From the NCBI RefSeq assembly GCF_023100845.1, contig NZ_CP095864.1, positions 1,984,001 through 2,048,000 on the forward strand: a DNA stretch of 64,000 nucleotides, read 5' to 3'. Shown here piece after piece: positions 14,713 to 61,644 of the stretch. Source of the DNA: Gordonia sp. PP30 (GTDB lineage: Bacteria > Actinomycetota > Actinomycetes > Mycobacteriales > Mycobacteriaceae). The notes beneath the pieces are model-generated. The model made no database searches, was not told the DNA's origin, and was given only the letters and a program-made list of their open reading frames with translations. Within the stretch, counting starts at the first letter, position 1. Each line of letters starts with the position of its first letter. The position numbers were made by a program, and so were the translations under genes.

Positions 14713-16197
<1,485 letters not shown>

Positions 16198-17136
16198 TCA
16201 GTGCGAGACGAGGCGCTGCAACTCGGTGAGCCACGGGATGACGACGGCCAGCGTCGGCACCACCAGCAGGGCCGCGGCCAGCGTGTAGGCGGTGACCGAG
16301 ATCCGGCGGCGGCGATCCTGCGGACCGATCAGCCGGCGTACGCGGGTGATCGTGGTGGGACCGCCCACGGCCATCGCGCCGCGCGGGGCGGTCGCGTCGG
16401 CGCAGGCGACGAGGGCACGGCCCACGGTGGTGCGACCGGTCACCCGGACGGCCTGATCGTCGGCCAGCGCCTCGGCCAGCAGTTCGACGGCGCTCAGCGC
16501 CGAGCGGGACCGCACGAATCGGGGGAATGCCGCATGCAGGGCGATGAAGGCCTCCAGCACCAGGTCGTGCCGGGCGCGCAGGTGGGCGCGCTCGTGCTCG
16601 ATCACCGCGGCCAGTTCGTCGGCGGACAGCCGCGCGAGGACGCCCTCGGACAGCACCACCCGCGAGCGGAGCCCGGGCAGGCAGTAGGCCATCGGGACGG
16701 GGACGTCGAGCACCCGGATGTCGGCGCCGGCGTGCCGATGCAGGTCCACCCGGTCGACCAGGTCGATGAGGGTGCGGTGGCGCCGGCGGCGGGCCCGGGT
16801 GCGGGCGCCGATCCGCATCACGGTGACGGTCAGGCGCACCCCGATCACCAGAGTGGCGGCGAAGACCAGCATGTACACCGACCAGGTGAACCAGCCGAGC
16901 CGGTGGAGTTCGGCGCCGAGCGTGGTGGTGGGGGTGCCGTCGGGACCGGGGGCGAGCAGGTTGGCGGCGATCGCCAGGCCGGTGCTGAACGCGGAGAGCA
17001 CGGCGGCCAGTGCGATGGACTGCCAGAGGGTCATCGCGGCGCGGGGCGCGTACAGCGGCCACTCCGCGCGGGCGAGGGCTTCTGGGATCGGACCGACCAG
17101 CGCAACGGTGAGGATGCCGAACAGCAGCGCGGTCAT
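16198..17136 (-). CDS. M56-family membrane metallopeptidase (BlaR1-like)
   Basis: A 312-residue membrane protease with helices near the N-terminus, at about 35-60 and 85-110, and at the C-terminus. A cytoplasmic-side zinc protease domain has the HExxH motif in VIEHERAHLRARHD (about 193-206), followed by an EALADDQAV third-ligand region. There is no penicillin-sensor domain, unlike staphylococcal BlaR1. It follows blaI after 48 nt, the classic arrangement in which the protease inactivates the repressor. No beta-lactamase gene is nearby. It corresponds to Rv1845c. Confidence 0.85.
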   Translation of the reverse strand: MTALLFGILTVALVGPIPEALARAEWPLYAPRAAMTLWQSIALAAVLSAFSTGLAIAANLLAPGPDGTPTTTLGAELHRLGWFTWSVYMLVFAATLVIGVRLTVTVMRIGARTRARRRRHRTLIDLVDRVDLHRHAGADIRVLDVPVPMAYCLPGLRSRVVLSEGVLARLSADELAAVIEHERAHLRARHDLVLEAFIALHAAFPRFVRSRSALSAVELLAEALADDQAVRVTGRTTVGRALVACADATAPRGAMAVGGPTTITRVRRLIGPQDRRRRISVTAYTLAAALLVVPTLAVVIPWLTELQRLVSH

Positions 17137-17184: not shown

Positions 17185-17577
17185 TCAGCCGAGGGCGCGC
17201 TCGGCGGCTTCGAGTTCGTCGAGCGCCTCGCGCAGGGCCGCGGCCTCGTCGGCGCCGACACGGCCGACGAAGGAGACGAGGGCGGCATGCCGGGAATCGG
17301 GGGCATCGGCGGCGCGCAGCGCGTCGACCATGAGGCTGGCGACCAGGTCCTCACGCGGGCGCGTCGCGGTGTAGCGATGGGCGCGGTCGTCGCGGATCTG
17401 CGTGACCAGATCCTTCTTCGCCAGACGTTGCAGGACGGTCATCACCGTCGTGTACGCGAGCGTCCGGGTCTTGGCCAGCTCGGCGTGCACCTGCCGCACG
17501 GTCTGCGGGGTCGGCGACGCCCACAGCGTGTCCATCACGGCGCGCTCAAGATCTCCGAGTCCGTTCATCTTCTTCAT
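17185..17577 (-). CDS. blaI: BlaI/MecI/CopY-family winged-helix repressor
   Basis: A 130-residue DNA-binding repressor with the family core LGDLERAVMDTLWASPTPQTVRQVHAEL and AYTTVMTVLQRLAKKDLV in the N-terminal winged helix, then a helical dimerisation tail. ATG 17577 (MKKMNGL) is chosen for the GTGGGAG sequence about 10 nt upstream; ATG 17568 is an alternative. It is paired with the M56 peptidase gene, which probably cleaves it. The Rv1846c homologue represses itself, the peptidase and distant genes. No clear TACA/TGTA dyad was found upstream here. Divergent from an iron-box promoter. Confidence 0.9.
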   Translation of the reverse strand: MKKMNGLGDLERAVMDTLWASPTPQTVRQVHAELAKTRTLAYTTVMTVLQRLAKKDLVTQIRDDRAHRYTATRPREDLVASLMVDALRAADAPDSRHAALVSFVGRVGADEAAALREALDELEAAERALG

Positions 17578-17689
17578 TCTACGCCCGCTCCCACATTCTG
17601 ATTCCGGTCGTCCTCTCATCTAACGGACGACGGCCGCCAGGTGTTCCCGGCCGGCCGGCGAACCGTTGACCTCGGCGTTCCCGCCGGAG

Positions 17690-17718
17690 TTGACACCGAG
17701 GTAAGGCTAGCCTACATT
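17690..17718 (+). promoter_or_regulatory. Near-consensus sigma-A promoter with embedded IdeR/DtxR-type iron box
   Basis: TTGACA (17690-17695), a 17-nt spacer and TACATT (17713-17718) make an almost ideal vegetative promoter. The spacer carries AGGTAAGGCTAGCCTA (17699-17714), which fits the IdeR box TWAGGTWAGSCTWACCTWA at about 15 of 19 positions. Iron-loaded IdeR would sit between -35 and -10 and repress. The expected transcription start is near 17725. Confidence 0.8.
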
Positions 17719-17724
17719 ATCTCT

Positions 17725-17815
17725 CAGGGATCGCGAGAGTGTCCTGAGGGCTGCAGAGACCCCCGATCCTCACACGGTGATGACCCCCGGTGCATTCGCA
17801 CCGGGGGTCATCACC
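17725..17815 (+). ncRNA. mrsI: Candidate iron-responsive small RNA, MrsI-like
   Basis: No protein frame follows the iron-box promoter before a very strong hairpin: an 18-bp perfect stem (17776-17793 with 17798-17815) and ATTC loop. This ends a putative transcript of about 90 nt. A smaller 5' stem, CTCAGG (17723-17728) with CCTGAG (17743-17748), would expose a loop of about 14 nt. In M. tuberculosis the IdeR-controlled iron-sparing sRNA MrsI (ncRv11846) is named for its place beside Rv1846c. Here the same place, between blaI (Rv1846c) and the Rv1847-type thioesterase, holds this unit. Homology of the RNA itself is inferred from position, promoter and structure, not from sequence alignment. Confidence 0.7.
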
Positions 17816-17846
17816 GCTTCACGGCCGGGGTGTCTACGCTCGGTGC

Positions 17847-18263
17847 ATGGGAAACGAATCAGTCGCGGAATTCGGTGGCAGGGGACTCGACGGCCTGCTC
17901 GGCCTGCAGATCAGCGAGGCGAGCGGGGACGGGGTACGGGCCACCTTGGAGATCAGGCCCGACCACCACCAGCCGTTCGGCATCGTGAACGGCGGGGTGT
18001 ACTGCGCGGTCGCCGAGAGCACCGCGAGTATCAGTGGCTACTGCTGGTTACAGGAGACCGGCATGGGCGGCGCGGCCGTCGGCGCCAACAACAGCACCGA
18101 CTTCCTGCGTTCGATCAGCGAGGGCACGCTGCACATCAGCACCACGCCGATCCACCGCGGACGCCGCCAGCAGCTGTGGCAGGTCGACATGACCGACGGC
18201 GACGGCCGCCTGCTCGCTCAGTCGCGGGTGCGGCTGCAGAACATCGAACTGCCCGAGGGCTGA
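17847..18263 (+). CDS. PaaI-type hotdog-fold thioesterase
   Basis: A 138-residue single hotdog-fold thioesterase with the PaaI-like pattern HHQPFGIVNGGVYCAVAEST (about 47-66), in which HxxP..N-GG..A..E includes the catalytic residues, and NNSTDFLRS further on. It likely hydrolyses an aromatic or short acyl-CoA in the cytosol; the substrate is unknown. ATG 17847 is chosen since TACGCT at 17835-17840 lies 6 nt upstream, the spacing of a leaderless mRNA. The longer frame to 17790 would run into the sRNA hairpin. It is the Rv1847 counterpart. Confidence 0.85.
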   Translation: MGNESVAEFGGRGLDGLLGLQISEASGDGVRATLEIRPDHHQPFGIVNGGVYCAVAESTASISGYCWLQETGMGGAAVGANNSTDFLRSISEGTLHISTTPIHRGRRQQLWQVDMTDGDGRLLAQSRVRLQNIELPEG

Positions 18264-18282: not shown

Positions 18283-19761
18283 TCAGGCTTCCTTGGCGGT
18301 TTCCTTGGCCGGGGCCTCGTCGGCGACCGACTTCTCCAGTTCCTTGGCCACGGCGATCGGGTCCTCGTTGTCGCGCTCGGCCTGCGAGAGCCGCAGCCGC
18401 TCGAGGTAGCTGAGCTCGTTGAGCGCCGAGCGGGCGTAGACCTGCTGCTCGGTGATCGCCAGCTGGGTGCGCCCGCGCGTGGTGAACGAGAAGAACCAGT
18501 TGACCAGCGTGTTCAATCGGTTGCGGTAGCCCACCAGATACACCAGGTGCAGAGCGAGCCAGCCGAGCCACGCGAAGTAACCCTCGGTCTCGAACTTCTT
18601 CTTGGTGCCCGGGATCGGCACCTGCATCACGGCGCTGAACCGGGAGACGGTCGCCATCGAGCCCTTGTCGAAGTATTTGAACGGCTTGCGCTGATCCGGC
18701 GTCTGGCCGTGCTTCAGCTCGGCCAGGATCGCGTCGGCGGCGTACCGGCCGCCCTGGATCGCGCCCTGCGCCACCCCGGGCACACCGTCGACGGCCATCA
18801 TGTCGCCGACGACGAAGATGTTCGTGTGGTCGGCGACGGTCAGGTCCGGACCCACCTTGACCCGGCCGGCCCGGTCGAGTTCGACGCCGGTCTTGTCGCG
18901 CAACACCTCGCCGAGGGCGCTCGCCTGCACACCCGCCGACCACACCTTGCACTGGCTCTCGATGCGGCGCTCGGTGCCGTCCTTGTCCTTCACGACGAGA
19001 CCGTCGTAGTCCAGGTCGACCACCATGGCGCCGAGCTGGATCTCCACCCCGAGCTTCTCCAGCCGCTTCGACGCCTTGGCGCCGAGCTTGGGGCCGAACG
19101 GCGCCAGCACGGCCGGAGCGGCGTCGAGCAGGATGACGCGGGCCTTGGTCGGGTCGATGTTGCGGAAGGCGCCCTTGAGGGTCTTGTCGCTCATCTCGGC
19201 GATCTGGCCGGCCATCTCGACGCCGGTCGGGCCGGCGCCGACGACCACGAAAGTCATCAGCTTCTCCTGCTCGGCCGGATCGTCGGAGAGTTCGGCCTGC
19301 TCGAAGGCGCCGAGGATACGGCCGCGCAGCTCGAGGGCGTGGTCGATGGTCTTCATGCCGGGCGCGTACTCGGCGAACTGGTCGTTGCCGAAGTACGACT
19401 GGTCAGCGCCCGCGGCGATGATGAGATCGTCGTACCGGGTCTCGGTGATGCGCTCGAGGAGCTGGCTGCGCACCACCTGCTGCTCGACGTCGATGTCGAA
19501 GACCTCGCCGAGCAGCACCCGGGTGTTCTTCTGCTTCTCCAGCACCACGCGGGTCGCCGGCGCGATCTCACCCTCGGCGACGATGCCGGTCGCGAGTTGG
19601 TACAGCATCGGCTGGAAGAGGTGCGTCGTGGTCTTGGCGATCAGCGTGACGTCGACGTCCTTCGCCTTCTTCAGGCGCTGGGCCGCGAACAACCCGCCGA
19701 ACCCCGATCCGACGATGACGACCTGACGGCGAGTCGTACCGGTGGCGGGGGCGTTGGTCAT
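18283..19761 (-). CDS. ndh: Type II NADH dehydrogenase
   Basis: A 492-residue peripheral membrane flavoprotein that oxidises NADH and reduces menaquinone without pumping protons. Two dinucleotide folds are visible: VVIVGSGFGGLFAAQRLKK (FAD, residues about 14-32) and TFVVVGAGPTGVEMAGQ (NADH, about 170-186). The FAD-ribityl motif NIFVVGDMMAVDG follows. A C-terminal region with LGWLALHLVYLVGYRNRL gives membrane attachment. The last 40 residues are charged and Lys/Glu/Ala-rich. It is the Rv1854c equivalent; the urease genes that precede it in M. tuberculosis are absent. ATG 19761. Confidence 0.95.
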   Translation of the reverse strand: MTNAPATGTTRRQVVIVGSGFGGLFAAQRLKKAKDVDVTLIAKTTTHLFQPMLYQLATGIVAEGEIAPATRVVLEKQKNTRVLLGEVFDIDVEQQVVRSQLLERITETRYDDLIIAAGADQSYFGNDQFAEYAPGMKTIDHALELRGRILGAFEQAELSDDPAEQEKLMTFVVVGAGPTGVEMAGQIAEMSDKTLKGAFRNIDPTKARVILLDAAPAVLAPFGPKLGAKASKRLEKLGVEIQLGAMVVDLDYDGLVVKDKDGTERRIESQCKVWSAGVQASALGEVLRDKTGVELDRAGRVKVGPDLTVADHTNIFVVGDMMAVDGVPGVAQGAIQGGRYAADAILAELKHGQTPDQRKPFKYFDKGSMATVSRFSAVMQVPIPGTKKKFETEGYFAWLGWLALHLVYLVGYRNRLNTLVNWFFSFTTRGRTQLAITEQQVYARSALNELSYLERLRLSQAERDNEDPIAVAKELEKSVADEAPAKETAKEA

Positions 19762-29631: not shown

Positions 29632-30435
29632 TCAGAAACGCACCCGCGTCAAGGAGGGCCGGATGTCCCGGATCTTCGGCAGGCTGCTGAGCGTCCGCAG
29701 CAGTGACGTCTTCCATGGGCCGCGGCCAGGCGGGAGTTCCAGGTCGGTCACCTCGGTGACCCCGGGAAGGTCGATGAGCGCCGCGGCCTCACTGACGGTC
29801 AGCGCGAACGGCATCGGTGGCGCCTGGTAGCCGGTGCTGAGCTTCAGGCCGGCCAGCGTCTTCCGGGAGAACCAGTGCGGGATCGAGTCGAAGACCAGCA
29901 CCCCGCCCGGGAATCGTCCGGCGAGGAAGGCGATCAGGCCGCGCGCCTCCTCCGGGGTGAGATACATCAGCAGTCCCTCGGCGGTGACGATCACGCCGTC
30001 GTCCGCCTCGATGTCATCGGCCCAAGAGGTGTCCAGCGCTGACATCGCGCGGTACTCGATCGCCTCCTCGGGCGGGAACAGGCGCTCGCGGAGGGCGATC
30101 ACCGGCGGCAGGTCGACGCTGAGCCACCTCCGGACCGGCCGCCCGAGCCGCCAGTACGACGTCTGCAAGCCCTCGGCGAGGGCGACGACGGTCGCCCTCG
30201 GATGCGCGTCCAGATAGTCGCGGATCTCCTGGTCGACGGCCAGCGCCCGCAGCGGGTGCGTCTGGCTCGGCTTCCCGAATCGCGTGAAATCGGTGTCGAT
30301 CGCGCGATATGCCTCCACGGCGAGCGGATCGTCGAACGACGAGTCCGCGCGCATCGCCTCCTCGGCCCGGTTGCGCAGGGTCCAAAGCGTCGTCGCCGAC
30401 ACGCCGTCGAGCTGGTCGCCGTCGATACGTTCCAT
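29632..30435 (-). CDS. LCMT/TcmP-family SAM-dependent O-methyltransferase
   Basis: A 267-residue class I methyltransferase of the leucine carboxyl methyltransferase-like group. It has a helical N-terminus, FGKPSQTHPLRALAVDQEIRDYL, TVVALAEGLQTSYWRL (motif I region, with an unusual A-E-G-L-Q instead of the common LGAGLDT), WLSVDLPPVIALRERLFPP and VIVTAEGLLMYLTPEEARGLI. Such enzymes methylate small carboxylates or hydroxyls, often in secondary metabolism. ATG 30435 lies 6 nt after a TAACCT -10 (minus strand 30447-30442), and an iron-box-like sequence overlaps that -10, so iron control is plausible. Its 3' end faces recD across 13 nt. Confidence 0.8.
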   Translation of the reverse strand: MERIDGDQLDGVSATTLWTLRNRAEEAMRADSSFDDPLAVEAYRAIDTDFTRFGKPSQTHPLRALAVDQEIRDYLDAHPRATVVALAEGLQTSYWRLGRPVRRWLSVDLPPVIALRERLFPPEEAIEYRAMSALDTSWADDIEADDGVIVTAEGLLMYLTPEEARGLIAFLAGRFPGGVLVFDSIPHWFSRKTLAGLKLSTGYQAPPMPFALTVSEAAALIDLPGVTEVTDLELPPGRGPWKTSLLRTLSSLPKIRDIRPSLTRVRF

Positions 30436-30439
30436 CTAC

Positions 30440-30453
30440 TTAGGTTACCCTAA
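30440..30453 (-). promoter_or_regulatory. Iron-box-like site overlapping the methyltransferase promoter
   Basis: TTAGGTTACCCTAA (30440-30453, plus-strand reading) matches the first 14 positions of the IdeR box with one mismatch, but the outer half-site CCTWA is missing. It covers the -10 TAACCT of the leaderless methyltransferase gene, a position where a bound repressor would block transcription. A partial site, so binding is uncertain. Confidence 0.5.
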
Positions 30454-30591
30454 TTCGAGGTGGATGCGCCGTCGAGCGAGTAGGCAGGGCCGGACGGCGT
30501 GGATGTCCGCAGAACACCTGCCGCCGCAGCGGCGCGAGTGGCGCGGTGTCCACCGCTCTCGGCGCGGTGAGCCGGGCTCGTCGCCGGCCCG

Positions 30592-61625: not shown

Positions 61626-61644
61626 GAAGGGTAGCCTAACCGAA
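61626..61644 (-). promoter_or_regulatory. Candidate IdeR/DtxR box upstream of the methyltransferase-deacetylase pair
   Basis: GAAGGGTAGCCTAACCGAA (61626-61644) matches the 19-bp IdeR consensus at 16 positions, the best of the three sites in this window. On the minus strand it overlaps TAGGCT (61638-61633), a plausible -10, and abuts TATATT (61648-61643). Repression by iron-loaded IdeR is the natural prediction. Confidence 0.65.

What the first reader, a model, noticed from the sequence alone, without database searches (positions are those of the whole stretch)
17690..17815. Probable MrsI-type iron-sparing sRNA between blaI and the thioesterase gene
Seen: TTGACA, 17 nt, TACATT with an iron-box-like dyad inside the spacer, then about 50 nt with a small stem-loop, then an 18-bp perfect hairpin and no coding frame. 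Known: in M. tuberculosis the IdeR-regulated sRNA MrsI is named for its place beside Rv1846c (blaI). Inference: the same locus here encodes the orthologous RNA, which would extend it outside Mycobacterium.
Basis: partly seen in the sequence, partly recalled or inferred. Interest (0 to 1): 0.8.

Follow-up and report, generated by a model that had tools for sequence, protein, structure and literature searches.

The report
MrsI-type iron-sparing RNA in Gordonia
A Gordonia genome carries, beside the same neighbour genes as in mycobacteria, a conserved predicted small-RNA gene with an iron-box promoter motif, and this RNA would likely shut down iron-rich proteins when iron runs short, with a ferredoxin message as its predicted main target.

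Summary
At 17690-17816 lie a sigma-70-like promoter with a DtxR/IdeR-type iron box in its spacer, a predicted RNA of about 92 nt, and a 19-bp perfect hairpin. The RNA core is conserved in sequence and structure in Gordonia, Williamsia, Mycobacterium, Mycobacteroides and some Nocardia, with a 7-nt apical loop, AGGGCUG, in all 54 aligned sequences. The same thioesterase gene follows in 82 of 82 testable loci; blaI lies upstream in 82 of 84. An IdeR orthologue is encoded. An iron-box search of the genome (one mismatch allowed) finds four loci; this promoter is the only perfect match. No member was found in 243 genomes of other families of the order (strict filters). It stands in bfr leaders of Williamsia (7 of 7) and Mycobacterium (6 of 8 copies); the window's genome has no bfr. 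Transcription, iron response and repression are untested. A new member of a known kind; the conserved ferredoxin site is the new part.

The parts
17690..17718 (+). sigma-70-like promoter: TTGACA (17690-17695), 17-nt spacer, TACATT (17713-17718)
   Evidence: read
17697..17715 (+). DtxR/IdeR-type iron box inside the promoter spacer (core AGGTAAGGCTAGCCT 17699-17713)
   Evidence: a box of 13/19 or better upstream of the RNA core in 82 of 82 distinct loci of relatives
17725..17816 (+). predicted small RNA, about 92 nt (start inferred as 7 nt after the -10 hexamer; end at the hairpin)
   Evidence: inference from promoter and hairpin; fold
17728..17769 (+). conserved RNA core: outer helix 17728-17733/17764-17769, inner helix 17741-17746/17754-17760 with one bulged base at 17757
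17747..17753 (+). invariant 7-nt apical loop AGGGCUG; predicted seed GGGCUG (17748-17753)
   Evidence: present in 54 of 54 aligned sequences; 0.88-0.99 unpaired in the predicted RNA
17761..17763 (+). C-rich stretch between the helices (CCC), mostly conserved; possible second contact
   Evidence: role not tested
17775..17816 (+). 19-bp perfect hairpin without a T-run, probable I-shaped terminator
   Evidence: downstream hairpin of at least 8 perfect bp in 69 of 82 loci of relatives, at least 6 bp in 74
17185..17619 (-). blaI (penicillinase-repressor family)
17847..18263 (+). hotdog thioesterase gene (position of Rv1847; similarity to MenI and EntH below their cut-offs), downstream on the same strand in every testable locus

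Best explanation
The interval holds a predicted small-RNA gene of about 92 nt that is likely the Gordonia orthologue of the mycobacterial iron-sparing RNA MrsI: IdeR would repress it while iron is plentiful, and when iron is short its predicted exposed 7-nt loop AGGGCUG would pair with CAGCCC sites in mRNA leaders, above all that of a 7Fe ferredoxin, and likely block or destabilise those messages. Shown by sequence: promoter hexamers, iron box, conserved core with covarying helices, invariant loop, hairpin, synteny, IdeR gene, and recurrence of CAGCCC in ferredoxin leaders. Inferred: transcription, start site, termination, IdeR control, pairing and repression.
For: RNA core aligned in 54 distinct sequences: 96.8% of pair cells are standard pairs, 19 cells changed on both sides against 4.7 in shuffles (0 of 500 reach it); helices slid by 1-3 columns pair 31-45%. 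Loop columns invariant. Iron box 13/19 or better in 82 of 82 loci, shuffle means 9.1-10.1, 0 or 1 of 100 shuffles reaching it per locus. The genome-wide box search (one mismatch allowed) found four loci: this promoter, sdhC, a divergent isochorismatase-domain/AMP-ligase pair, and a periplasmic-binding-protein gene beside a condensation-domain (NRPS-type) gene; the reversed pattern matched once. IdeR: best PDB match 1fx7, E = 4e-103, over the NCBIfam cut-off. Ferredoxin leader: CAGCCC within 150 nt in 29 of 30 Gordonia loci and in the 31st genome's locus, fetched later, so 30 of 31; the 30 permutations of the 6-mer, itself included, average 4.0, the next best (CCAGCC, overlapping) 19; it ties with the Shine-Dalgarno AAGGAG as commonest 6-mer. 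Mycobacterium 21 of 28, permutation mean 3.3, next best 16. bfr leaders: Williamsia 7 of 7, Mycobacterium 6 of 8 copies.
Against: No RNA data. The published seed letters were not seen. In Mycobacterium ferredoxin leaders only the 6-mer recurs: 0 of 28 have CAGCCCT, against 23 of 30 in Gordonia. Within 100 nt of the start the Gordonia count is 20 of 30. In the window's own genome nuoB also has a site, but only 1 of 29 Gordonia nuoB leaders does, so single-genome hits are weak. The own-genome pattern CAGCCCT-GGA-RTG has 36 matches, fewer than the reversed control (53). Gordonia bfr leaders have no site (0 of 5). Across 56 bfr copies the site goes only weakly with detected RNA (21/36 against 7/20, Fisher p = 0.16). 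The ferredoxin site often lies far from the start codon (-40 to -119 in Gordonia), and in the own leader it is only partly unpaired (0.31-0.82). RNAalifold on its own called only the inner helix. Of the covariation measures, the number of further pair types is reached by 65 of 500 shuffles.
Confidence: 0.75

Rival explanations
1. The element is mainly a cis-acting, iron-controlled leader of the downstream thioesterase gene: the iron-box promoter drives that gene and the hairpins tune read-through. The trans-acting role would be secondary or absent.
For: The thioesterase gene lies downstream on the same strand in 82 of 82 loci with enough sequence, also where blaI is about 1 kb away or not found. 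The protein resembles EntH and MenI thioesterases, though below their cut-offs.
Against: A 19-bp hairpin stands between. In L117-L121 the gene starts about 520-560 nt from the core, in L087 about 457, in L137 and L138 about 340. Reviews describe a transcript of about 100 nt in M. tuberculosis (passages). An invariant loop complementary to ferredoxin and bfr leaders is not expected of a pure leader.
Confidence: 0.12
2. CAGCCC in the ferredoxin leaders is a DNA or RNA element for something else (a transcription factor or leader structure), and its match to the RNA loop is chance; the RNA exists but has other targets.
For: Distance to the start codon varies widely (-40 to -119 in Gordonia) and pairing was not shown. 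Genomes without the RNA could not be tested systematically; for bfr the association with RNA presence is not significant.
Against: The motif is the exact complement of six letters of the invariant loop, recurs in two genera with different flanks, and recurs in bfr leaders of Mycobacterium, bfrA being the published MrsI target.
Confidence: 0.2
3. The promoter, box and hairpin are chance or remnants and no RNA is made.
For: No expression data for this genome.
Against: Conservation of box, core and hairpin across genera and a fold z-score of -7.5.
Confidence: 0.03

Closest known systems
MrsI (ncRv11846), Mycobacterium
   Same: Same locus, IdeR-type box at the promoter, about 100 nt, structured, 7-nt apical loop, terminator-like hairpin (review passages); alignable core in named Mycobacterium genomes.
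   Different: Lies in Gordonia. The published target bfrA is absent from this genome; a ferredoxin leader is the predicted conserved target.
RyhB / PrrF / FsrA / IsrR iron-sparing RNAs
   Same: Works like them by prediction: repressed by an iron regulator, pairs with messages of iron proteins (passages of PMC9410917).
   Different: Not compared by sequence here. [quoted passage not shown]

Membership tests
MrsI | Gene between blaI and the Rv1847-type thioesterase | tested here: met
MrsI | IdeR box at the promoter | tested here: met
   (consensus recalled; binding not tested)
MrsI | IdeR present in the genome | tested here: met
MrsI | RNA core homologous to the copies in Mycobacterium at the same locus | tested here: met
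   (named Mycobacterium loci; the H37Rv sequence itself was not fetched)
MrsI | 7-nt apical loop | tested here: met
MrsI | The published 6-nt seed | tested here: inconclusive
   seed GGGCUG inferred from complements in bfr and ferredoxin leaders; the published letters were not seen
MrsI | About 100-nt independent transcript induced by iron limitation | not testable with these tools
   needs RNA
MrsI-bfrA regulatory pair (a target, not a mark of orthology) | bfr gene with a CAGCCC leader in the same genome | tested here: not met
   no TIGR00754 match in G000; its one PF00210 gene is another ferritin
Any Rfam 15 family | Match at the gathering score | tested here: not met
   (best microRNA hit 26.3 bits against 75, best sRNA hit F6, 18.4 against 46)

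The most novel reading that the evidence does not exclude
The conserved core target of MrsI across its family range is a 7Fe ferredoxin, not bacterioferritin: under iron shortage the RNA turns down an iron-sulfur electron carrier, and it persists in Gordonia, where bfr is absent (3 of 8 genomes) or lacks the site (5 of 8), because the ferredoxin leader keeps it.
Probability: 0.5. Interest if true: 0.62.

Novelty: new member of a known kind. Interest (0 to 1): 0.5.

Why it matters
It carries an iron-sparing RNA known from mycobacteria to relatives outside that genus. It supplies an alignment, a covariance model and a seed that can be tested by comparison, and it names a new conserved candidate target, a ferredoxin, that a simple reporter could test.

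Tried and rejected
Rfam gave no member (the low-score microRNA and F6 hits match the long hairpin). A pattern of the full 19-mer box consensus with 3 mismatches gave nothing, so the box was scored instead. A first fold from 17720 gave another 5' hairpin; from the predicted start 17725 the conserved fold is the minimum. The own-genome seed scan alone is not informative (36 matches against 53 for the reversed pattern; 9-mer 34 against 57). nuoB was a good-looking own-genome target, but only 1 of 29 Gordonia leaders has the site: rejected as conserved. A Mrp-type gene (start-codon overlap, L157), a kinase-like gene (L145), an acyl-CoA synthetase-like gene (L207) and a CtaB-like gene (L222) (the last three named by eye) were not followed. 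A hairpin loop CAGCCCT after the ferritin gene was not followed. bfr sites against RNA presence: p = 0.16, inconclusive; the RNA-presence list was typed by hand, and the DNA search probably misses diverged copies. Dropped rows: one bfr copy (G031, start not found) of 57; for G052 the script took a start 13 nt off (one search gives -26, counted as a site either way). In the Mycobacterium ferredoxin set (31 genomes, 30 loci) L306 and L314 were dropped (start not found), G569 had no locus, and L329 and L330 are more distant copies (71-72% identity) that were kept as misses. Only the best ferredoxin copy per genome was examined; second copies exist in some genomes. In one search the thioesterase was translated in a wrong frame; one search replaces it.

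Full report
What is there. The window lies in a 4.48-Mb single-contig genome. It is a Gordonia by its relatives: two genus-mates of the window's genome carry loci identical to named G. paraffinivorans and G. liuliyuniae records, and BlaI is 86% identical to that of G. liuliyuniae over residues 10-137. Gene order around the finding: guaB1-type gene (14713-16152, -), M48/M56 peptidase gene (16198-17136, -), blaI (17185-17619, -), the interval, a hotdog thioesterase gene (17847-18263, +), and a pyridine-nucleotide-disulphide oxidoreductase gene, NDH-2-like (18283-19761, -).

Conservation. A DNA search of 301 genomes of the family found the element in 171 at E <= 0.001; one of those rows, G289, matches only the hairpin part, and rows below the listing were not inspected. 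The BlaI scan of named genomes kept the best 80 loci. With an expression for the inner hairpin (up to 3 mismatches), 66 of 112 loci then held, named and unnamed, contained a match; two of these (L049, L082) look like chance and were dropped, and after removal of the window's own copies and 8 duplicates 53 remained; with the window 54 sequences were aligned. Of the named loci, 22 of 27 of the Mycobacterium group, 3 of 23 Nocardia and 0 of 7 Rhodococcus/Rhodococcoides hold the core; the model found no convincing further copy among those without (its second hit, L019, was in the training set, and two weak hits have E 0.15 and 0.91). In those genera the RNA is absent, moved or diverged at the blaI locus.

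Structure. I named the structure from the alignment: an outer helix (GGAYCG with CGRUCC) and an inner helix (GUC-CUG with CAG-n-GAC) closing a 7-nt loop. 96.8% of cells pair. Four pairs show changes on both sides, for example C-G to U-A in 11 sequences of the outer helix and U-A to C-G in three Nocardia sequences of the inner helix. Cells changed on both sides: 19 against a shuffled mean of 4.7 (0 of 500); pairs so changed: 4 (5 of 500 shuffles reach it); further pair types: 10 (65 of 500 reach it). Shuffling does not remove relatedness; the slid control pairs 31-45% and shows 0-8 double-change cells. RNAalifold by itself called only the inner helix. A covariance model found the RNA in 43 of 298 genomes of the order; all 43 belong to the window's family (55 such genomes by the order of the listing), 0 of the other 243 (strict filters, not all rows listed). 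By nearest named locus the matching genera include Gordonia, Williamsia, Mycobacterium and Nocardia.

Regulation. Each of 82 distinct loci with enough sequence has a DtxR/IdeR-like box of at least 13 of 19 letters upstream of the core; the consensus is recalled. In the window's genome the pattern AGGTWAGSCTWRCCT with up to one mismatch hits four loci: this promoter (no mismatch), the sdhC promoter, a divergent pair of an isochorismatase-domain and an AMP-binding gene, and a periplasmic-binding-protein gene (weakly like enterobactin and hydroxamate binding proteins) next to a condensation-domain gene; the reversed pattern hits once. The genome encodes an IdeR whose best solved match is M. tuberculosis IdeR 1fx7 (the species of that entry is recalled). 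IdeR control is therefore the likely reading; it is not shown.

Targets. Reviews say that MrsI uses a 6-nt seed and a 7-nt apical loop and represses bfrA, hypF and fprA (passages); the original paper was not held. The loop AGGGCUG predicts target sites with CAGCCC. In bfr leaders (120 nt) this is found in Williamsia 7 of 7, Mycobacterium 6 of 8 copies, in some other genera (g27 6 of 6, g21 5 of 6, g19 2 of 2, g2 2 of 2) and not in others; Gordonia 0 of 5. Over 56 bfr copies the association with detected RNA is not significant (21/36 against 7/20, p = 0.16). The window's genome has no bfr. A scan of that genome pointed to a ferredoxin gene (C1:3281006-3281329, -), over the cut-off of NCBIfam FdxA_Actino with the closest solved relative 2v2k. 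In 31 Gordonia genomes 30 loci came with the search: 29 carry CAGCCC within 150 nt of the start (20 within 100 nt), 23 CAGCCCT; the miss is L255. The 31st, fetched apart, has it at -76. Other 150-nt stretches of the same loci have it in 0 to 8 of 30, apart from the first 150 bases of the gene (17 of 30, none with CAGCCCT). In Mycobacterium 21 of 28 loci carry CAGCCC upstream, none CAGCCCT; other stretches 0 to 5. One Mycobacterium genome in which the model found no RNA (G285) has no site, but its locus is a more distant copy, so this says little. The flanks and the distance to the start differ widely between species, which fits a trans-acting contact better than a promoter part (inference). 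nuoB leaders, which serve as a control, have it in 1 of 29.

Neighbours. The thioesterase gene lies downstream on the same strand in 82 of 84 distinct loci; the two others are cut off by the end of the stored sequence. blaI lies upstream in 82 of 84, more than 900 nt away in 29 of those, and was not found in the 3-kb loci L131 and L136. This leaves room for read-through into the thioesterase gene, kept as the main rival.

Print. No paper in the held open library has MrsI with Gordonia or MrsI with fdxC; MrsI with Rhodococcus gave 4 papers, seen as listing only. This covers open-licence PubMed Central only, and the MrsI paper itself is not in it.

Verdict. A new, well-supported member of the MrsI kind outside Mycobacterium; the mechanism is inferred by homology and by site conservation. 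The ferredoxin site is the point worth testing.

Noticed in passing
window 61626-61644: A second iron-box-like dyad (15 of 19 letters) lies about 100 nt upstream of a gene with a phosphoribosyl-ATP pyrophosphohydrolase domain, hisE-like; hisE is recalled as IdeR-linked in M. tuberculosis.
   Followed up: partly
window 30435-30458: Another box-like site (14 of 19 letters) at the start of a leucine-carboxyl-methyltransferase-domain gene.
   Followed up: no
L143 1973-1987: After the only PF00210 ferritin gene found in the genome stands CCCG-CAGCCCT-CGGG, a possible small hairpin whose 7-nt loop is the exact complement of the RNA loop: kissing contact or chance.
   Followed up: no
L298 (C1:1356258-1356272): An iron-box match lies before sdhC, so succinate dehydrogenase may be under IdeR directly.
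   Followed up: no
L157, start of gene: A Mrp-type gene (FeS_assembly_P plus NUBPL P-loop domains) begins GTG ACT AGT GCAGCCCTC, overlapping the loop complement.
   Followed up: no
L117-L121: In five Mycobacterium loci the thioesterase gene starts about 520-560 nt from the RNA core; most loci have 100-250 nt.
   Followed up: no
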